Below are positions 1-13,609 of a stretch of DNA of 15,648 bases, piece after piece. The notes beneath the pieces were generated by a model. The model was not told where the DNA came from. It saw only the letters and a program-made list of their open reading frames with translations, and made no database searches. Source of the DNA: Candidatus Sumerlaeota bacterium (GTDB lineage Bacteria; Sumerlaeota; Sumerlaeia; JADFCT01); assembly GCA_026398575.1 (NCBI GenBank), contig JAPLSP010000186.1, positions 1-15,648 of the forward strand, in the 5' to 3' direction. The position numbers were made by a program, and so were the translations under genes. How positions within the stretch are numbered: position 1 is the stretch's first letter; each line of letters starts with the position of its first letter.

Positions 1-82
1 GGAGTAAGGTGGCTCGCCGCCTTCTTTTGGGCGGATTCAATGGCCTTGGCGCTAAAAAGAAGGCGGCGAGCCACCTTACTCC
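1..82. repeat. Perfect 28-bp inverted repeat (palindromic intergenic element)
   Basis: Bases 1-28 and 55-82 are exact reverse complements, separated by a 26-base loop (29-54). The arm contains the core GTGGCTCGCCGCCTTC. It lies about 100 bp beyond the stop of the minus-strand heparinase fragment, so as RNA it would form a very stable hairpin that could end or shield that transcript. No U-tract follows on either strand, so it is not a textbook intrinsic terminator. The layout (long perfect arms, short loop, intergenic) resembles REP or MITE-type dispersed repeats. The window edge cuts at base 1, so the element may extend to the left. Confidence 0.8.
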
Positions 83-182: not shown

Positions 183-1415
183 TCACTTCCAGCTTTCCAA
201 GGGCGTGATCTTCGGCGCAGAGGCCGCCTTGCCCCCAGTCCAGACGGGCGCCAGCAAGACTGCGACCGTCAGGCTTCCCGTGCGATTGGGAAGGCGGATC
301 ATCAGGCGCGAAAAGCCTCTGTTCGAGTGCTCTTCGGGTTTCTCGCGCGTTGGCTCGATGGTGAACTTCGCGCCGGCGGGCGATAAAATCACGGCGCGCA
401 GTTGCTGGTTTCCCCGGCTGAGAGTCGCGGTTTCATTTTGCAGCGCGATTTTCGCATCGGTCGTCATACCCCACGCTACTTCGCAAGGGCTTTTCAGTTC
501 GAATTCATCCTGGATCAGCGCCGCGCCGGCGGCGATTCCCGGAGGACCGGGTTCCACCGCCACGCCGCGCGTGACGCGGCGCGCCAACTCCGAATAGGCC
601 GCGGTCAGGTCAACGATGGCGAATCGCCCCGCGCCGTCGCTTTTGAATTTCGCGATTTCGGCTTTGCCTTTGATGTTCTGGTTTTTGCCATTCAGGAGCG
701 GCACGTTATGACTCTCCGACATCAGCCGGTAATACGTCCAGCGCTTGCCGGTTTCGCCGCTGCTGAAGTAACTGGGCAGATTGTAGTCGTCGCTCCCCAG
801 ATCGTTCGCCCAGCGCTGGCCGAGCGCGTCAAACTCGAACTGCCCCAGATCGAGGTGCCCGTGGTTGACCTGGTTGTATCCGCCTTTGACGGCGAGGAAA
901 ACCGCATTGGGATCGTTCCACGCGCCGTGAAAAACCGCCACCGGCACCGGCCCGTGAAAGAGCTTGTCCAGCGGCAGCGGCAGCGTGGCCTTTTGCGGCG
1001 GGAAATACCAGATAACGTCCCACGGCGTTGCGGCGTCGCCACGCGTGAGCATAGCGCGCTGAGCGTCTGCCAGGTCGAGCTTGTCATAGCGCCGCACCAG
1101 CCAGAAAAGGCAGTCTATGCCTTTGAGACGCGGGTTGCCGCCAACGTCGGCGAAGTTGAAGAGAAATCCCGCCGGTCCGGCGGTCATCAGCGGGAAGTAT
1201 CCAGCCTGCGCCAGCCCTTTGGATTCCGACAATCCGTAATCGGTTCCCAGCGCCGTTTGCAGCGCCGCAAGCGCGAAGCACGTGTAGTGCGTGGCATAAG
1301 ACCAATAGCCCGGCCCTTCGCCCCAGGCGCCGTCAGGCTCGTAGGAGACCAGCGCTTTGGGCAGCGAGAGTACGGCCGCCGGAACGATTTTTTGCGCGTA
1401 TTCCGGATCGGTTTC
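183..1415 (-). pseudogene. Heparinase II/III-like protein, C-terminal fragment
   Basis: This is the C-terminal part of a polysaccharide lyase of the heparinase II/III type (PF07940-like), normally a secreted enzyme that cleaves uronic-acid polysaccharides by beta-elimination. Family-like segments seen are WGEGPGYWSYATHYT, then the beta-sheet segment VNHGHLDLGQFEFDALGQRW followed by LGSDDYNLPSYF, where the His/Asp-rich strand is the hallmark. Homologous sequence starts near DPEYAQKIV (about base 1408). The open frame continues upstream to a start at 1496, but those roughly 25 residues are encoded by the repeat element at 1416-1529 and are not enzyme sequence. The signal peptide and N-terminal helices lie at 2680-3029, and about 100 expected residues between the pieces are absent, including the central conserved Asn/His segment. 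A functional lyase is therefore unlikely. The stop is TGA at 185-183. Confidence 0.8.
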
Positions 1416-1529
1416 GAATGGTGCTAATTTAAGCGCTGTGGCAGGGGCATCTTGCCCATGAAACTCCATGGAACACGGGCAGGATGCCCGTGCCACGTTT
1501 TCCTTCAGGCGCTTAAGTTAGCGCCATTC
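1416..1529. repeat. MITE-like repeat, copy 1 (114 bp, terminal inverted repeats)
   Basis: The left end reads GAATGGTGCTAATTTAAGCG and the right end is the near reverse complement CGCTTAAGTTAGCGCCATTC (18 of 20 positions pair). Inside is a second palindrome, roughly 1437-1496: GTGGCAGGGGCATCTTGCCC pairs with GGGCAGGATGCCCGTGCCAC around a loop holding CTCCATGG. A second copy, nearly identical apart from a few substitutions and one indel, lies at 2362-2476. Both are followed by AGGT(C/T)TGACCC. No clear target-site duplication is visible. The left end abuts heparinase coding sequence, so this end marks one boundary of the foreign segment. No transposase is encoded, so mobilisation would have to be in trans. 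Confidence 0.8.
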
Positions 1530-1576
1530 AGGTCTGACCCCGCCGCTGTTGCCATTTTCGCATTCGCATTTTTGCC

Positions 1577-1609
1577 TTGACAATAGGGGGAACCTAATGA
1601 AAATATATA
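1577..1609 (+). promoter_or_regulatory. Possible sigma70-type promoter of the two-gene cassette
   Basis: A perfect -35 hexamer TTGACA lies at 1577-1582 in an AT-rich stretch upstream of the cassette. The best -10 candidate is TATATA at 1604-1609 (4 of 6 consensus matches), but the spacer is 21 bases, longer than usual, so the pairing is doubtful. The location, after the end of repeat copy 1 and before the first cassette gene, suggests the cassette carries its own promoter. Confidence 0.35.
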
Positions 1610-1626
1610 CCTAAGCTCTTTTGAGA

Positions 1627-1661
1627 GTGCATCGCTTCGCCGATGCGCCTTAAGAGAGGCG
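1627..1661 (+). promoter_or_regulatory. Two hairpins in the cassette leader
   Basis: Between the candidate promoter and the first cassette gene, GTGCATCG (1627-1634) pairs with CGATGCGC (1641-1648) around the loop CTTCGC, with one G-U pair. Overlapping it, CGCCT (1646-1650) pairs with AGGCG (1657-1661) around TAAGAG. The two stems share bases 1646-1648, so they are mutually exclusive, which would allow a switch-like leader. The ribosome binding site at 1678-1684 lies just downstream. No function is demonstrated. Confidence 0.4.
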
Positions 1662-1690
1662 TTATGCGGAGAAACCTAAAGGAGCATATT

Positions 1691-2149
1691 ATGAGCAAAG
1701 CTACCCCCGACTTGATGGGGTTCATTCGGGCAAAGGCGCGCAGCAGAGCGAAAGTCGAACCCGAGGTTGATTGGGAAGTCAGAAAGAATAATTGGCTAAG
1801 GCAGATTGCGCAATTGTACTCGCTCATGCGAAAATGGCTGGCGCCGCTGGAAAAGGAGGGCAGTGTGCGCTACCTAACTGCCAATATCCCCTTGCAAGAG
1901 GATTATATAGGCGCATACGAGGCTGAAGTGCTTACAGTCCTCATCGCAAAACAGAGAGTTGCTTTCTACCCAAAGGGGACCCTGATCGTTGGCGCCGATG
2001 GCAGGATAGATATACGAGGCCCCAAAGGTGTCCGAACAGTCGTCCACAGCGATGACAAATGGCAGCTTGTCGAAAGAAGCCCCAACCTCAAGCTCATTCC
2101 TTTTAATCAGGACTCATTTCGGGATTTGCTTAGCGAGGTCATGCTATGA
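1691..2149 (+). CDS. Uncharacterised 152-residue protein, first gene of the repeat-flanked cassette
   Basis: I do not recognise a characterised family. The start at 1691 is chosen because AAAGGAG (1678-1684) sits 6 bases upstream; an in-frame ATG at 1643 would add 16 basic residues and has no comparable site. The product has no signal peptide or membrane segment, so it is probably cytoplasmic. Its N-terminal half is basic and helical, with a WLRQIAQLYSLMRKWL stretch. The C-terminal half looks beta-rich: FYPKGTLIVGADGRIDIRGP, then a WQLVERSP strand and a closing helix FRDLLSEVML. The TGA stop overlaps the start of the next gene (ATGA), implying co-translation. Base composition is visibly more AT-rich than the flanking enzyme genes, consistent with acquisition. 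A toxin-antitoxin, defence or gene-cassette role is possible by context only. Confidence 0.75.
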   Translation: MSKATPDLMGFIRAKARSRAKVEPEVDWEVRKNNWLRQIAQLYSLMRKWLAPLEKEGSVRYLTANIPLQEDYIGAYEAEVLTVLIAKQRVAFYPKGTLIVGADGRIDIRGPKGVRTVVHSDDKWQLVERSPNLKLIPFNQDSFRDLLSEVML

Positions 2150-2373
2150 AGACCAGAAACTCCATCAATCCAGACCAGGTTACCGTGGATGATGTTTGGG
2201 AGCATTATCAGTTTAGCCGGGACAGTATTGCACAGACTGCTGATCGCACGATGCAAGCTATAGTTACAGGAAGCGCCATTCCTGACTCGCGATTCATCGC
2301 AATGAGCCGCGAAGAAGTAGACGAGTTTTTTGAAGCGAAATTGAATGAGACAGATAACCAGGCATGTCCCTAA
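2146..2373 (+). CDS. Uncharacterised 75-residue protein, second gene of the cassette
   Basis: This is a small acidic protein overlapping the preceding gene by ATGA, with GAGG (2135-2138) seven bases upstream of its ATG, a typical translationally coupled pair. It has no signal peptide or transmembrane segment. It appears helical, with the motif VWEHYQFSRDSIAQTADRT followed by SRFIAMSREEVDEFFEAKL. The C-terminal residues and the TAA stop (2371-2373) run into the left end of repeat copy 2, so the natural C terminus may have been altered. Its size, charge and coupling to a basic partner resemble an antitoxin or small binding partner, but no family was recognised, so that is speculation. Confidence 0.65.
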   Translation: MKTRNSINPDQVTVDDVWEHYQFSRDSIAQTADRTMQAIVTGSAIPDSRFIAMSREEVDEFFEAKLNETDNQACP

Positions 2374-2476
2374 CTTAAGCGCTGTGGCAGGGGCAATCTT
2401 GCCCATGAAACTCCATGGAACACGTGCAGGATGCCCGTGCCACGTTTGCCTTCAGGCGCTTAAGTTAGCGCCATTC
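2362..2476. repeat. MITE-like repeat, copy 2 (about 115 bp)
   Basis: This is a direct-orientation copy of the element at 1416-1529, with the same internal palindrome (GTGGCAGGGGCAATCTTGCC pairing with the region ending GATGCCCGTGCCAC) and the same right terminus CGCTTAAGTTAGCGCCATTC. The left terminus is degenerate: GCATGTCCCTAACTTAAGCG matches copy 1's end only in part. It therefore probably decayed, or the cassette joined there. It is followed by AGGTTTGACCC, which matches the flank of copy 1. Direct repeats on both sides of the cassette would allow its loss by homologous recombination, or its capture as a composite unit. Confidence 0.75.
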
Positions 2477-2544
2477 AGGTTTGACCCAGCCCGGTAATAG
2501 CCTCAGAAAAGTGTGAAAAATATTGGAAGGGAAAGGATTCAAAA

Positions 2545-2670
2545 ATGAAAAAACATTTCAGAACTCCGATACTTGTGATGGCGGCTTTCCTTTGTTCCCT
2601 CTGTGCCTATACTCTTGAGACACCCTTCCTGAAAAAATTAGACTCTAACAGGAAGGAGAAAAAAACATGA
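2545..2670 (+). CDS. Small secreted or membrane peptide ORF (41 residues), probably a displaced fragment
   Basis: The ORF reads MKKHFRTPILVMAAFLCSLC, then about 21 more residues ending in KEKKT and TGA. The N terminus has the layout of a signal peptide: Lys-Lys-His, then a hydrophobic stretch of about 14 residues, then possible cleavage near Ala-Tyr-Thr. A purine-rich site (GGGAAAGG, 2529-2536) precedes the ATG. Its stop overlaps a second ATG at 2667 that has its own strong site AGGAAGGAG (2650-2658), but the frame starting there only reads antisense through the heparinase fragment. This looks like the start of a foreign operon, cut off where heparinase sequence begins near 2680. It may be a real small protein or just a remnant. 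Confidence 0.4.
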   Translation: MKKHFRTPILVMAAFLCSLCAYTLETPFLKKLDSNRKEKKT

Positions 2671-3029
2671 GTTCCAGTAGCGCCGTCGTTCCTCCAGGCC
2701 AGCGCCAGCGCATAAACGCGATCCAGACAGTCGCGGCTGACTTGCAGAAGCCGCGGGCCGATCTTCTCGTACTTGAGCGGCGGCTTCCTCATAGCCTTAT
2801 CCGCTCTGCCGACCACGTCCTTGACGCATTTTTTCAGCAGCTCATCCTTCTGCATGAGCGCCTTGATTTCTTCGAGGTTTTTATCTTTAAGGAGCAAGCG
2901 CGGATGCTGCTTATCGAGCGTCGAGAGGACGGTTTCCGGTTTTGGAACCTCCGCCGCGGAAACGGAAGCGCAGGCCCATCCTGCCAGCAGGAGGATGGAA
3001 AGGAATTTCAGAAAAAAAGCACGGAGCAT
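2607..3029 (-). pseudogene. Heparinase II/III-like protein, N-terminal fragment
   Basis: This is the first ~117 residues of the enzyme whose C-terminal part lies at 183-1415. It begins with a signal peptide (residues 1-26: FFLKFLSILLLAGWACASVSA), then the typical opening HPRLLLKDKNLEEIKALM and the helical segment GPRLLQVSRDCLDRVYALAL ending AWRNDG. The start at 3029 is supported by GAGGAG eight to nine bases upstream. Homology stops near base 2680; the last ~23 residues of the open frame read through foreign sequence. In related proteins about 100 residues, including a conserved central Asn/His segment, would separate this piece from the C-terminal one. Those residues are not found anywhere in the window, so the gene was replaced in part and not merely split. 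The exported stub probably has no lyase activity. Confidence 0.75.
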
Positions 3030-6992: not shown

Positions 6993-9900
6993 ATGGCGGA
7001 AAACGAAGAACCCATTATCGGCATAGACTTGGGAACCACCAATTCAGAGGTCGCCATCCTCGAGGGCGAAAAACCTGTCGTCATCGTGAGCTCGGAGGGA
7101 TCGAACCGAACCCCTTCCGTCGTTGCGTTCCTGAGCAACGGCGACGTGGCCGTGGGCGACATGGCCGTGCGCCAGGCAGCCACCAATCCCACGCGCACCA
7201 TCAGCGTCATCAAACGCCTGATGGGCCGTTTTTATTCGGACCTTACCGAGGAAGACCTTCAATGCCCCTACCGGATCATTGACCACGACGACGAGATCAT
7301 GATTGACATAGACGGCAAGGGATATACCCCGCCGCAGCTGTCTTCGCTTATCCTGGGCAAACTGAAGGCCACCGCCGAAGAATATCTCGGAACCAAGGTG
7401 AAGAAGGCCGTCATCACGGTTCCCGCCTACTTCGATGATCTCCAGCGCGAGGCGACGGCCGAAGCGGGGCGTCTGGCGGGCCTGGAAGTCCTCCGGCTGA
7501 TCAACGAGCCGACGGCCGCGGCCATGGCGTATGGGCTGGACAAAGATGAACAGGAAACCATCGCCGTCTATGACTTCGGCGGCGGCACCTTTGACCTTTC
7601 GATTTTGGAGGTGGATAGAAACTCGTTCGAGGTCATTACCTCCCTGGGCGACACGCACTTGGGCGGCGAGGACATTGACCGCGCCTTGCTTGCCATGATT
7701 TGCGGCAAATACCAGGAAGAGAAAGGCGTGGACCTGGCCGCCGATCCCGTCAGCTATTATCGCTTGAAGGAAGCGGTTGAGAAAGCCAAATGCGAGCTGT
7801 CCGCGATGAAACAAGCGCGCCTGAATCTGCCGTTCATCGCCACGAAGGACAGCCAGCCCATCCATCTGGACACCGTCATCACGCGCGAGGAACTCGAGGA
7901 ATTGGTCGAGCCGCTGACCGAGCGCACCACTCAAATCTGCAAACGCGCTTTGCAGGAAGCCGGCTTGAAACGCAGCCAGATCGGCAAAGTGATTCTGGTC
8001 GGCGGGACGTCGCGCATTCCGCTCGTCCAGCAAATGGTGGGAGAATTCTTCGACCAGGAGCCGTTCAAGGGCGTCAATCCGGACGAAGCCGTGGCGCTCG
8101 GCGCCGCCACACAAGGCGCCGTCTTCGGCGGCAAGCTCGAGGAAGTGATCCTGCTGGACGTGACGCCGCATTCCCTGGGCATCGAAGTCCTGGGATCGCG
8201 TTTTTCGCCGATCATCGAAAAAAACAGCACCATCCCCATCAAAGCGGGAAAAATTTTCACGACGACCGAGGAAAACCAGGAATTTGTGACGGTGCACGTC
8301 TTGCAGGGCGAAAGTCAAAACGCCGCCGATAATCGCTCGATCGGAAAATTCATGCTGGCCGGCTTGACGCCCCGGCCCAAAGGCTCGCCCCGCATCCAAG
8401 TCGTGTTTTTTATCAACTCCGACGGCATCGTGGAAATTTCGGCCAAGGACCTGGAATCCGGCGCCGAGAAAAGCCTGAAGGTTGTGCATTCGCATCTGAG
8501 TGAGAAAGAGCGGAACGAACGCAGCAAGCGGCGCAGCAAAGCGGCGCGCGGCGGACGGCGCAAAGCTGCCGCCGTCAAGCCGGAATTCGAAGGAGTCGCG
8601 CTGCCGGAAGCAGGGGAGGAAGACGCGACGGCGCTCGGTGAATCCTTCGCCGAGGTTACGGGCGAATCCGCGCTGGTGCGTCCGGCGCCGGCGCCCGCCG
8701 GACAGCCCGAAGCCCCCACAACCAGGAAAGCGGGCGCCACCGCCGTTCCGAGAAAAGCTGCTACCGGCGCAACTCCGCAAAAAGCCGCAACCGGCGTAAC
8801 CCCAAAAACAGCCGCAGCAGCGCCTTCAGCGCCCGCGCCCCCTCCCACAGCGCCCCCCGCCCCGCCTGCGCCTGTCGCCGAGCCTGCGCCCGCCGCAGAG
8901 CCCGCGCCCGGACCTTCCGCGGAAATTCCCGAATCCGTGCGGATGACCGAGGCCATGCTGGCGGCGAACAAGGAAGATACCTCCGCGCTCCTGCTCTACG
9001 AATCCACCGCGGACGCCTATAAGACGCTGATTGCCGGGGCGGCCGAAGGACAGCCGATGGGTTGGGCGATCCTCTCGCTTGCGCGCGTGTATGCGCTGCG
9101 CAAACAGCCGGATGAGGCCATGGCGCTGTTGCGCGAGGCGAAGGAAAAGGGACGCCTGACGGCGCCGCAATTGAGCGCGGCCCTGGACGGCCTCATCGAG
9201 CGTTTCCCCAATTATGGCCCCGCCCTTATTGAGCGGGCGCAGGCGCGCTCGCAGGAAGGGCGCATGGATGAGGCGATCGAAGACGCCGAGCAGGCCGTCG
9301 CGCGCGAGGAAACCAACGACGCCTGGGCCGACGTGCTGGAATCCCTGTACCGCCAAAGCATCGTCGCGCAGCCGGATCCCGCCGTCGAATTCAAGATGGT
9401 CAAGTTGTTCCTGCAGCGCGACAAGGTGGATGAAGCCATCGAAATTCTCCAGCGCCTGACGGAGAATCCGGAATATGAGAAGCGGGCGCTCAAAATCCTG
9501 GGCCTGTGTTTCTGGCAAAAAAATCTGTATTACCTGGCCTGGCAAAAGTTCAAGCAAATCGAACTCAACGAAGAGATCAAGGACGTGCTGTACCGGCTGG
9601 CGGCCGATATGGAAAACGCCGACCAGCTCAGCAATGCGCGGCAGGTGTTGGATCACCTGGCCGAGGCCGACTCCAACTATCGCGACATCAAGGCGCGCTT
9701 GCAGCGCATCGGCTTCCAGATCAAGGCGCAGCAAGAGGACCTGGAGCGCGCGGGGATGCCCGAGACGCATCAGATCCTCAAAGATTCCCGGTTTATCATT
9801 CTCGAGGAAATCAACCGCGGCTCGATGGGTGTGATCTATCGCGCCAAGGACGTGGTCCTGGACGAAGTGGTGGCGCTCAAAGTCCTCAACGACTACCTGT

Positions 9901-10571
9901 GCGCCGATCCGATGGCGATCGAGCGCTTCAAGACCGAGGCGCGCGCCGCCCGGAAACTGACCCATCGCAATATCGTGCGCATCCACGACTTTTTCGAGAG
10001 CGGCAAAAAGAAATTCATTTCAATGGAATACATCGAAGGCAAGGACCTGAAGACAATCCTGAAGGAGGAAGGACCCTTGCAGCCGTAGCGCGTGGCCAAG
10101 CTGATCTCCTCCGTGGCGCATGCGCTGGACTATGCGCATTCGCGCAAGGTGATCCACCGCGACATCAAGCCCGCCAACCTGATGATCGCCGCCGACGGCG
10201 AGATTCGCATCACGGACTTCGGCATCGCGAAGATCATCCGGTCCGACGACGCCACGCTGAGCGCGTCGGTGATCGTAGGCACGCCGCTTTACATGGCGCC
10301 CGAGCAGATCGAGGGCAGCGAGATTGACTGCCGGGCCGATCTGTACGCCCTGGGGATTGTCATTTATGAATTGATCACGGGCCGCCCGCCGTTCCTCGAA
10401 GGCAACATCGAATATCACCATATCCATACGCCGCCGCCGCCGCTGCCGGACAGCGTTCCCGCGAAAATGACGGCCATCATCATGCGCGCCATCGAAAAGA
10501 AACCAGCCAATCGCTATCAAACGGCGGCCGAGATGGCCAAGGCGCTGGATGAATTCATGGCGCAATTATAA
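6993..10571 (+). CDS. Hsp70 (DnaK-like) - TPR - Ser/Thr protein kinase fusion, interrupted by in-frame TAG at 10086-10088
   Basis: Probable cytoplasmic chaperone/kinase signalling protein; 1192 codons if the amber at codon 1032 is read through, or a 1031-residue product if not. The Hsp70 ATPase domain (1-385) has IGIDLGTTNS near 9, INEPTAAAMAYG near 170, YDFGGGTFDLS near 193 and VILVGGTSRIP near 333. A substrate-binding beta domain follows to about 500; the usual alpha-helical lid is replaced by a basic stretch and an Ala/Pro-rich linker (about 520-646). Helical TPR-type repeats span about 650-920 and a Hanks-type kinase about 930-1190. The kinase has a glycine loop INRGSMG, Lys963 in VALKVL, then TAG, then HRDIKPAN (Asp1057), DFG (Asp1075) and APE. 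Sequence on both sides of the TAG is in one frame and well conserved, so the break is a single nonsense codon (plausibly from CAG or GAG), an assembly error or recoding. Without readthrough the kinase lacks its catalytic loop. A GTG at 10092 has no well-placed ribosome site. Confidence 0.85.
10086..10088 (+). other. In-frame amber codon within the kinase domain
   Basis: The frame reads GPLQP, TAG, then RVAKLISSVAHAL. In kinases of this type this point lies between the hinge region and the helix preceding the catalytic loop, where Glu or Gln is common. Every other gene-like ORF in the window that I could check ends in TGA or TAA, so this is the only TAG seen at the end of an ORF. That fits either a recent mutation or recoding, and the sample is small. 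Confidence 0.8.
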
Positions 10572-10816: not shown

Positions 10817-10828
10817 CGTTCGGAGTGT

Positions 10829-10998
10829 TTGTAGTTCCAACTGTTCGTAGTTCCAACTGTTCGTAGTTCCAACTTTAGTTGGCGCTCGTAGTTCCAACTT
10901 TAGTTGGCGCTCGTAGTTCCAACTTTAGTTGGCGCTCGTAGTTCCAACTTTAGTTGGCGCTCGTAGTTCCAACTTTAGTTGGCGCTTGTAGTTCCAAC
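10829..10998. repeat. Palindromic tandem array: two 16-bp units, then five 25-bp units and a partial
   Basis: Two 16-base units (10829-10844, 10845-10860; TCGTAGTTCCAACTGT type) are followed by five 25-base units at 10861, 10886, 10911, 10936 and 10961, each TCGTAGTTCCAACT plus TTAGTTGGCGC, identical to one another. A partial unit lies at 10986-10998. Each 25-base unit contains the hairpin CCAACT-TT-AGTTGG. The array begins 12 bases after the rubredoxin stop and overlaps the 3' end of the convergent gene at 10950-11981. Between convergent genes it could act as a two-way terminator, but the homogeneity suggests recent tandem expansion. Confidence 0.9.
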
Positions 10999-11981
10999 GC
11001 CGGCTGCAGCGCGGGCAATCGGGCCGAGCAACTCAAGCCGATATTCAGCGACAAGGCGATGACCTCCAGACACGGGCGAAGGCGTGGATTGCGATAAACA
11101 ATCCGCTCAGGCGCCGCGCCAACGTTCTCAATCATGCCGAGTATTTCATTCGCCATCTTCAAATGCGCGTCCTTCGGATGAAGCATTTGCCATCCAAACA
11201 CCATTCCTGACCTGCGATCCACGCACATCAACATAATGGGAAAAAATGAGCGCTCTTTGTCCCCGACGGGGGCAGGGATGGCCTTCATATCCATTTCCCA
11301 AACGCCGGCGCGGGAAAGATTCCTGGAGGCGAGCGCCTGCAATCTGCGGCTGTCAATGACCGGTGAAACCAAGGGAGTCGCTGTCCGGACAGGACGCAGC
11401 CATTGATCCTTCCAAACGCGCTGGCCGCCCTCTTCGACCGGAACGCGGGCAAAAAACGCGCCCTCTTCCGGCGCCGCCAGCAGATTGGGATCGTTCTTGA
11501 ACCTGCGAGCAACGTCGCAGGTCTGTTCAAGGATGGCAAGGAAAAAGCGGGCCTCCGCCGCATTGAAATCCCAGGGCACATAGCCCGGCAGATAGCTGCG
11601 CAAGGCCGGCCAGGCTTCCTTCCCGCGAAAATGAAGGCCCAGGTCCTTGATCACGGCGAGCGCCTGCTTGCGCATTCCGCGCCGCTCTACAAATAAAAGA
11701 GCCAGCGAATTCTGTTCGAGAACGGCAAGGAAGGGGTCTTCCTGCGGCCCATCCGCTTCCAATTTATCCAGAAACGCCAGCCCTTCCTCTCCGCGATACG
11801 CCGCCAGCCCCAGGCACTCTCCCAATGCGCCCATGACGCAGCAATAGGCCGTTTCGCCTGTTTCCGGGTCCCGCACGGCAATCATATCGCGATCGCGCAT
11901 CCATTGCCAGCACGCCAATTCGCGATAGGCGATAGCCGCCTGATAAAGCCGCTTTGATTCTTCAAGGCTGGGATAATTCAT
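10950..11981 (-). CDS. Uncharacterised DUF7309/DUF6930-type protein (343 residues) with repeat-encoded C terminus
   Basis: The opening layout (LYQAAIAYRELACWQWM, then a DPETGETAYCCVMGALGE stretch and YRGEEGLAFL) and the middle segment SYLPGYVPWDFNAAEARFFL resemble a widespread family of uncharacterised proteins that I recall under DUF7309 and DUF6930; the family numbers are from memory. No catalytic motif, signal peptide or membrane segment is evident. The natural protein probably ends near LPALQPAL. The last ~15 residues (LELQAPTKVGTTSAN) are encoded by the palindromic array, and the TAA stop (10952-10950) lies inside its fourth 25-base unit, so the original stop was likely lost when the array arrived. 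The gene lies 43 bases downstream of the M48 protease and is linked to it through a mini-ORF, so the two are probably one operon. Confidence 0.7.
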   Translation of the reverse strand: MNYPSLEESKRLYQAAIAYRELACWQWMRDRDMIAVRDPETGETAYCCVMGALGECLGLAAYRGEEGLAFLDKLEADGPQEDPFLAVLEQNSLALLFVERRGMRKQALAVIKDLGLHFRGKEAWPALRSYLPGYVPWDFNAAEARFFLAILEQTCDVARRFKNDPNLLAAPEEGAFFARVPVEEGGQRVWKDQWLRPVRTATPLVSPVIDSRRLQALASRNLSRAGVWEMDMKAIPAPVGDKERSFFPIMLMCVDRRSGMVFGWQMLHPKDAHLKMANEILGMIENVGAAPERIVYRNPRLRPCLEVIALSLNIGLSCSARLPALQPALELQAPTKVGTTSAN

Positions 11982-13317: not shown

Positions 13318-13439
13318 ACGCCGTGGCAAACAAACGAGATAACCGGCGAAACCATAGAGGCTTTCCCGCTTGAAGAAAAGGGCGGATTTTCATAAAATCC
13401 GGAAGAGGTTTTGTGCGCCTTAAGCCGCATAACGATAAG

Positions 13440-13526
13440 GTCACCACAGAGAAACCGAGGCACAGAGAAATTCACAAAGAACATTCCTTGATATATTTCT
13501 CTGTGCCTCGGTGTCTCTGTGGTGAC
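13440..13526. repeat. 32-bp inverted repeat (CACAGAG/CTCTGTG type)
   Basis: The left arm 13440-13471 and right arm 13495-13526 are reverse complements at 31 of 32 positions, around a 23-base loop. The arm begins GTCACCACAGAGA and continues CCGAGGCACAGAGAAAT, a motif I recall from intergenic DNA of many environmental bacteria. The hairpin lies between divergent genes, so a terminator role is unlikely; a mobile palindrome or protein-binding site is more plausible. Confidence 0.85.
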
Positions 13527-13609
13527 TTCATAAAAATTGGTTAAAGGGATACGATATTTTTAGGCTTAGCCCCCCCGCTCCCCAGCGCCTGCCTTGCCCA
13601 GCCCTTGTC

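What the first reader, a model, noticed from the sequence alone, without database searches (positions are those of the whole stretch)
1416..2670. Repeat-flanked two-gene cassette of unknown function lodged inside a heparinase gene
Two overlapping small genes (152 and 75 residues, ATGA junction, each with a ribosome site, with a candidate promoter and leader hairpins) lie between direct copies of a ~115-bp MITE-like repeat and interrupt a secreted lyase gene. The segment is more AT-rich than its surroundings. A basic first protein coupled to a small acidic second protein, self-contained and mobile-looking, is the layout of many toxin-antitoxin or defence modules, yet I recognise neither family. 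Seen: structure and boundaries. Inferred: mobility and function.
Basis: partly seen in the sequence, partly recalled or inferred. Interest (0 to 1): 0.75.

Follow-up and report, generated by a model that had tools for sequence, protein, structure and literature searches.

The report
Broken mobile RNase toxin gene pair
A two-gene module, found intact on prophages, small plasmids and several bacterial genomes, pairs an undescribed small protein with a HEPN-type enzyme that probably cuts RNA; in this stretch of DNA the enzyme gene has been cut short by a repeat, so only its partner is left whole.

Summary
The anatomy is real: two genes joined by ATGA (1691-2149, 2146-2373) lie between two 122-bp, 95%-identical palindromic repeats inside a lyase gene. 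Two points change. The 75-residue second protein is not an acidic antitoxin: it is the first 40% of a ~190-residue protein, cut off at the second repeat. The lyase gene is not merely split; about 97 codons are gone. Full-length relatives of gene 2 (B) carry the Rx4H motif of HEPN ribonucleases, model as a HEPN-like bundle and link by profile to a protein with a Pfam HEPN match. Gene 1 (A) belongs to an undescribed family, perhaps frataxin-like in fold. A lies directly upstream of B in 8 of 8 viral contigs found through B. Of 11 places found through A in two phyla, 8 have an intact Rx4H protein directly downstream, some of other HEPN types. No library searched has a match above cut-off for either. 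I read the module as a HEPN toxin with a new non-MNT partner (antitoxin or regulator), carried by prophages and plasmids, probably defensive; this copy is disabled. Toxicity, neutralisation and defence are inferred, not shown.

The parts
183..1430 (-). C-terminal part of an interrupted heparinase/chondroitinase-type lyase gene (Hepar_II_III_C)
   Evidence: Pfam PF07940 E 3.8e-06; aligns to residues 184-604 of PDB 8khv, E 2.2e-46
1416..1547 (.). repeat copy 1: ~122-bp palindromic, MITE-like repeat with imperfect terminal inverted repeats
   Evidence: 95% identical to copy 2; hairpin -79.1 kcal/mol, z -9.5
1577..1604 (+). sigma-70-like promoter candidate TTGACA-16-GAAAAT
   Evidence: consensus scan, 10 of 12 matches; 3 sites in the region against 0.9 expected in shuffles; weak
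1616..1658 (+). leader hairpin upstream of gene A, seen only in this copy
   Evidence: RNA fold z -2.86; no counterpart seen in 10 relatives
1691..2149 (+). gene A, 152 aa, full length; predicted antitoxin/regulator, possibly frataxin-like fold; GxxGR[IVL]D motif
2146..2373 (+). gene B stump, 75 aa: N-terminal 40% of a ~190-aa HEPN-like protein; Rx4H region absent
   Evidence: aligned with full-length B proteins; profile hit to model positions 1-67 of 178 only; no Rx4H
2370..2491 (.). repeat copy 2, same orientation as copy 1, left end diverged; supplies the stop codon of the B stump
2492..2689 (+). unassigned AT-rich segment (G+C 0.41) with a 41-aa ORF at 2545-2670 that looks like a signal peptide
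   Evidence: no Pfam match
2690..3029 (-). N-terminal part of the interrupted lyase gene, with a signal-peptide-like start
   Evidence: aligns to residues 14-86 of PDB 8khv, E 1.3e-06

Best explanation
The segment is a decayed copy of a mobile two-gene module. The intact module makes a small alpha/beta protein A first and, usually through overlapping reading frames, a HEPN ribonuclease B second. Most likely A binds B and keeps it inactive; when A is lost, displaced or inactivated (superinfecting phage, loss of the carrying plasmid), B cuts RNA and stops growth, which protects the prophage, plasmid or sister cells. In this window a palindromic repeat has replaced B from codon 75 on, removing the active site, so no ribonuclease can be made; A is still full length. 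The block repeat - A - stump - repeat, with a further foreign piece, replaced about 97 codons of a lyase gene. Shown by sequence: the pairing, its order and coupling, B's HEPN marks, B's truncation, the lyase deletion. Inferred: RNase activity, inhibition by A, the trigger, a defensive role, repeat-mediated movement.
For: Pairing: 8 of 8 viral contigs found through B have A directly upstream. Of 11 places found through A in samples of 395 and 398 genomes, 8 have an intact Rx4H protein directly downstream; the partners in G687, G688, G757 and G225 are other HEPN-like types. Coupling: of 16 pairs with both ends assigned (window and two near-identical Klebsiella copies included), 13 overlap by 4-14 bases and 3 have gaps of 4-11. 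HEPN: Rx4H in 23 of 23 full-length partners aligned (8 of them were found by that motif), the upstream E in 21 of 21 and Ex3[KR] in 12 of 21, marks described in PMC3710099; B profile against the L044-L046 partners prob 97.9, E 4.9e-13 over 158 columns; L044 partner to PF18735 HEPN_RiboL-PSP E 2.5e-4, below its cut-off; 6 of the first 10 Foldseek rows and 14 of the first 20 VIA-align rows are HEPN chains. Mobility: phage hallmark genes beside 7 of 8 viral-contig copies; small plasmids in Klebsiella and Raoultella, three records typed ColRNAI. Truncation. Loss of B's active half recurs: 3 of the 21 proteins stop or change frame before Rx4H. A occurs without B (L005, L026); among loci read in full, an intact B lacked an intact A once (L007).
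Confidence: 0.62

Rival explanations
1. A is not an antitoxin but a required subunit: A and B together form one effector, for instance with A recognising a phage component or RNA and B cutting.
For: A and B are nearly always together in fixed order; A is predicted as a well-folded domain (pLDDT 88) with nine columns invariant in 19 proteins, more than a simple disordered antitoxin needs.
Against: A occurs alone in L005 and L026; the 5' position of A is the usual antitoxin position (PMC3710099 section 14).
Confidence: 0.25
2. The HEPN protein is a non-catalytic RNA-binding regulator and A its ligand sensor, a regulatory pair rather than a toxin system.
For: Some HEPN families without the motif are thought to act that way (MtlR, PMC3710099 section 14).
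Against: Rx4H is kept in 23 of 23 full-length partners across very different A-B lineages, and the residue after R changes only among H, N and D, as described for active HEPN RNases.
Confidence: 0.1
3. The window cassette is itself a functional two-gene unit in which the short B has become the antitoxin or partner.
For: Both ORFs are open with a tight junction and A is full length. Short B forms without Rx4H occur elsewhere: P0025, P0026 and P0030, 107-122 aa, P0026 in 27 contigs.
Against: The window stump ends exactly at the repeat border where full-length relatives go on for about 115 residues; P0025 and P0026 end in frame-changed tails, as expected of broken genes; no homologue of the stump of similar length was found among 5.8e9 proteins (which sees only proteins 0.55-1.75 times its length).
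Confidence: 0.05
4. A was kept after B was lost because it still neutralises related HEPN toxins arriving on phages or plasmids (an anti-addiction remnant).
For: A is full length while B is destroyed here; A without B also in L005 and L026.
Against: B may simply have been broken recently; selection on A was not measured, as no close DNA relative was at hand.
Confidence: 0.2

Closest known systems
HepT/MntA (HEPN-MNT, type VII toxin-antitoxin; PMC7641770, passages read)
   Same: Two genes, partner first and HEPN ribonuclease second; HEPN-like fold; Rx4H motif.
   Different: Partner A has no GSX10DXD motif (0 of 26) and no nucleotidyltransferase match; B has no RX4HXY (0 of 23), so AMP transfer to that tyrosine cannot apply.
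RiboL-PSP-HEPN and MAE_28990 HEPN families (PF18735, PF18737)
   Same: Nearest Pfam HEPN models: L044 partner E 2.5e-4 and 0.009, L046 partner 0.022 (PF18737), L021 B 0.044 (PF18735).
   Different: All below curated cut-offs; no RNase L-PSP domain seen; the partner gene differs from the ParB, methylase and ParA/Soj-like partners listed for these families in PMC3710099.
HEPN-containing defence systems of prophages and satellites (PMC9519451, PMC9122126, PMC13092281; passages only)
   Same: HEPN proteins on prophages or satellites, often with unannotated partners.
   Different: The passages read do not describe this pair; figures and supplementary tables, which could, were not readable here.
Frataxin/CyaY
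   Different: No sequence match; Foldseek found nothing significant; no reason to expect iron chemistry.

Membership tests
HEPN superfamily (B, intact relatives) | Rx4-6H motif with polar residue after R | tested here: met
   23 of 23 full-length partners aligned; 8 were retrieved with the motif, while L003, L004, L006, L027, L044, L045 and L046 were reached through A. Three short B forms lack it
HEPN superfamily (B, intact relatives) | all-alpha HEPN fold | tested here: inconclusive
HEPN superfamily (B, intact relatives) | profile relation to a recognised HEPN family | tested here: met
   indirect: A6-A10 hhalign prob 97.9 and L044 partner to PF18735 E 2.5e-4, below gathering score; direct Pfam scans of the RHWLAHGR type gave no match near a cut-off
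HEPN superfamily (window B) | Rx4-6H motif present | tested here: not met
   75-aa stump ends before it
HepT/MntA type VII toxin-antitoxin | partner with GSX10DXD adenylyltransferase motif | tested here: not met
   0 of 26 A proteins
HepT/MntA type VII toxin-antitoxin | RX4HXY in the HEPN protein | tested here: not met
   0 of 23 full-length partners
Toxin-antitoxin module | two coupled genes, conserved as a pair | tested here: met
   exceptions L005, L026 (A alone) and L007 (A frameshifted)
Toxin-antitoxin module | one product toxic, the other neutralises it | not testable with these tools
   needs expression in a laboratory strain
Anti-phage defence system | protects against phage | not testable with these tools
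   prophage and plasmid carriage only; no PADLOC match
Frataxin family (A) | frataxin fold | tested here: inconclusive
Frataxin family (A) | sequence profile match | tested here: not met
   no Pfam family at E up to 1 for the window's A
MITE (flanking repeat) | terminal inverted repeats, no coding capacity of its own | tested here: met
MITE (flanking repeat) | target-site duplication and many genomic copies | tested here: inconclusive
   no duplication seen by eye; 2 copies in the window; the genome is not held
Integron cassette (attC) | RYYYAAC and GTTRRRY core sites (recalled consensus) | tested here: not met
   RYYYAAC absent from both window repeats and from 7 of 7 L002/L003 repeats; GTTRRRY present in 4 of those 7

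The most novel reading that the evidence does not exclude
Protein A founds a new class of HEPN-controlling proteins: a frataxin-like antitoxin or sensor that has repeatedly been paired with different HEPN ribonucleases (RHWLAHGR, RNWIAHG, RDWLAH and RNEIAH types), giving a widespread but unannotated phage-defence or addiction module of prophages, small plasmids and repeat-flanked cassettes. The window shows an end stage, in which the toxin is destroyed and the antidote is kept.
Probability: 0.42. Interest if true: 0.72.

Novelty: new variant of a known kind. Interest (0 to 1): 0.52.

Why it matters
HEPN ribonucleases are common effectors of bacterial defence and toxin systems, and how each is kept silent is known for few. 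A conserved partner without the nucleotidyltransferase motif would be another way of controlling them, open to test in an ordinary laboratory strain, and would give names to unannotated gene pairs on prophages and on small enterobacterial plasmids. For the window itself the result is a warning: a tidy repeat-bounded two-gene cassette can be a broken copy whose short second gene misleads about which protein is the toxin.

Tried and rejected
Pfam, NCBIfam, PADLOC and PHROGs scans of the window's two proteins gave nothing significant; Pfam, NCBIfam and PADLOC scans of 7 relatives (3 B, 4 A) gave no match near a cut-off. Later Pfam scans gave weak HEPN matches for some partners and, for the diverged A of L046, Glutaredoxin2_C at E 3.7e-5, below cut-off. 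Rfam: no match in the window. A homologue search with the 75-aa stump found only itself. The A-led search of viral contigs found none, although the B-led search of the same collection found 8 loci that do encode A relatives: the A pattern was too narrow. Phage records gave nothing; E. coli genomes gave nothing at DNA level. Direct comparison of B's profile with one DUF86-like HEPN and with the L027 partner was not significant. PDB sequence searches with the A and B profiles and with the L027 partner gave nothing meaningful. The viral structure library gave no significant match. A conserved leader RNA was rejected. An integron origin for the repeats was rejected on core motifs. Flanking direct repeats of 40 bases or more were sought in 15 loci: only L003 has a pair bracketing A and B; L004 has a tandem array upstream and L046 a partial duplication of the pair itself; L002, examined, has copies on both sides with other genes between. 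The window's repeat was not found elsewhere. Literature: searches did not show this pair; six papers were opened, PMC3710099 by outline, passages and sections 5 (part 1), 6 and 14, and PMC9519451, PMC9122126, PMC13092281, PMC10799925 and PMC7641770 by passages only; other papers were seen only as search listings. Supplementary tables were not readable, so an earlier description there is not excluded.

Full report
What is there. The window reads as the finding says in outline. Gene A (1691-2149) and gene B (2146-2373) overlap by ATGA. They lie between two direct copies of a 122-bp repeat, 1424-1544 and 2370-2491, 95.1% identical. Copy 1 folds as almost one perfect hairpin (-79.1 kcal/mol, z -9.5), with imperfect terminal inverted repeats; the left end of copy 2 has diverged. 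The G+C between the repeats is 0.49, against 0.62 and 0.56 for the flanking gene pieces.

The interrupted host gene. Both flanks belong to one lyase gene on the minus strand. The C-part matches Pfam Hepar_II_III_C and aligns to residues 184-604 of PDB 8khv (E 2.2e-46); the N-part aligns to residues 14-86 of the same chain (E 1.3e-06), and 8khw agrees (187-608 and 14-89). About 97 codons are therefore missing at the insertion site. A further AT-rich piece (2492-2689, G+C 0.41) of unknown origin with a 41-aa ORF lies between repeat 2 and the N-part. So this is a replacement, not a clean insertion, and I saw no target-site duplication.

Gene 2 is a stump. Homologues of A were found first (11 besides the query among 5.8e9 proteins; 4 genome contigs). 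In L003 and L004 the next gene is 192 and 184 aa long, and its first 70 or so residues align with the window's 75-aa protein. Search with the L003 gene gave 21 proteins; one of the closest full-length ones, P0027, is 64% identical to the window protein over the shared part. Of the 21, 18 carry Rx4H (17 of them RHWLAH, one RNWLAH); the other three are short forms discussed below. The window protein stops at the border with repeat 2, which supplies the stop codon. A maximum-sensitivity profile search of all six frames of the window found B only at 2134-2370, model positions 1-67 of 178.

Short B forms elsewhere. P0025, P0026 (122 aa) and P0030 (107 aa) end before Rx4H; the first two end in frame-changed tails. 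P0026 stands for 7 sequences in 27 contigs, the longest 175 kb. P0021 (144 aa) instead lacks the N-terminus and reads RNWLAH. I did not align or count these four rows at first. They show that loss of B's active half recurs, which fits a toxin gene under decay; they also leave open that a short B has a use, so I raised that rival from 0.04 to 0.05.

The pair. B-led: in 8 of 8 viral contigs (L009-L016) and at 7 of 7 genome places listed an A relative lies immediately upstream; four of those seven (G001, G002, G003:C106, G004) had been reached through A, so only G003:C82, G010 and the decayed G378 are independent. A-led: (395 and 398 genomes of two phyla, overlapping the samples) list 11 places. 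Eight are followed directly by an intact Rx4H protein (G003 twice, G010, G004, G225, G687, G688, G757); the other three are a solo A (G279), a decayed pair (G378) and a decayed second copy (G757). The G225, G687, G688 and G757 partners are not of the RHWLAHGR type; the diverged A genes match the A profile with probabilities 97.8-99.3. Of 16 pairs with both ends assigned, 13 overlap by 4-14 bases; L003, L014 and L027 have gaps of 6, 4 and 11 bases. Exceptions: L001 ends inside B at a contig end and the B frame of L002 is broken; L005 has A alone. Of 18 B-bearing Klebsiella-group plasmids, A was matched in 17 and in the 18th it runs across the record's start, both pieces found; in one, a 9.3-kb dimer, A is frameshifted in both copies while B is intact. 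Only L006 and L008 of the others were read through in full. The frameshift speaks against A as an indispensable antitoxin unless it is a sequencing error.

Where intact pairs live. Of the 8 viral-contig loci, 7 have phage hallmark genes among the neighbours scanned (terminase, scaffold, tail, repressor, integrase, helicase-primase, lysozyme); L010's scanned neighbours are a PAPS reductase-like gene and rdgC, with one more unmatched. In L013 an FRG-domain gene lies directly upstream of A. Klebsiella-group copies lie on plasmids of 3.7-4.7 kb, a 9.3-kb dimer and plasmids of 135-177 kb; three of the small records looked at are typed ColRNAI and one large one IncFIB. The pair is rare: B in 2 of 297 and 2 of 299 sampled genomes, each count including the centre genome. 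In L003 the pair is bracketed by two of three direct copies of a different, ~130-185-bp repeat; four copies occur in L002, among RelE- and HigA-like genes recognised by eye. These repeats lack the attC core RYYYAAC (consensus recalled). One of 15 loci tested shows such bracketing, so repeat flanking is not a general feature.

Mechanism. Best supported is a toxin-antitoxin-like or abortive-infection module: A first and inhibitory, B a HEPN ribonuclease. The order fits the argument made for MNT-HEPN pairs in PMC3710099 section 14. It is not HepT/MntA: A lacks GSX10DXD (0 of 26) and B lacks RX4HXY (0 of 23) (motifs as given in PMC7641770 passages). Rivals are an obligate two-part effector, a non-catalytic regulator and, for this window, an antidote kept after loss of its toxin. 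None can be decided by sequence.

Novelty. HEPN-partner gene pairs are a known kind. The partner family A, its pairing with several HEPN types, and the RHWLAHGR subfamily had no match above cut-off in the libraries searched, and literature searches did not show them; figures and supplementary tables of defence screens were not readable, so earlier listing under a system number remains possible. I rate it a new variant of a known kind. The window's own copy cannot work as the full module.

Noticed in passing
window 6993-10571: Gene for an Hsp70 (DnaK-like) domain followed by TPR repeats and a Ser/Thr kinase domain in one frame; an in-frame TAG at 10086-10088 splits the kinase domain. Unusual fusion; mutation, sequencing error or two genes.
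   Followed up: partly
window 10818-11023: Array of 16- and 25-bp tandem repeats (GTAGTTCCAACTTTAGTTGGCGCTC) reaching into the 3' end of a DUF7309-DUF6930 gene (10950-11981, minus strand).
   Followed up: no
window 1-82 and 13435-13531: Two further long hairpin repeats (33- and 37-bp arms, over 90% complementary), unlike the cassette repeat.
   Followed up: no
L034 1021-1368 (minus): A DUF86-like HEPN gene (RNYVAHNY, recognised by eye) close to an intact A-B pair in G003; the same genome has a second A-B pair in L003.
   Followed up: partly
L002 and L003: Direct copies of a ~130-220-bp repeat, 4 and 3 per contig, between short gene groups; in L002 these include RelE- and HigA-like toxin-antitoxin genes recognised by eye.
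   Followed up: partly
L007 (Klebsiella plasmid dimer): Gene A frameshifted in both copies while gene B is intact, in 1 of 18 B-bearing plasmids.
   Followed up: partly
P0025, P0026, P0030: Short B proteins (107-122 aa) without Rx4H, two with frame-changed tails; P0026 occurs in 27 contigs.
   Followed up: partly
L046 3732-3947: A decayed second copy of gene A about 2.1 kb from the intact pair, 92% identical over 213 nt.
   Followed up: no
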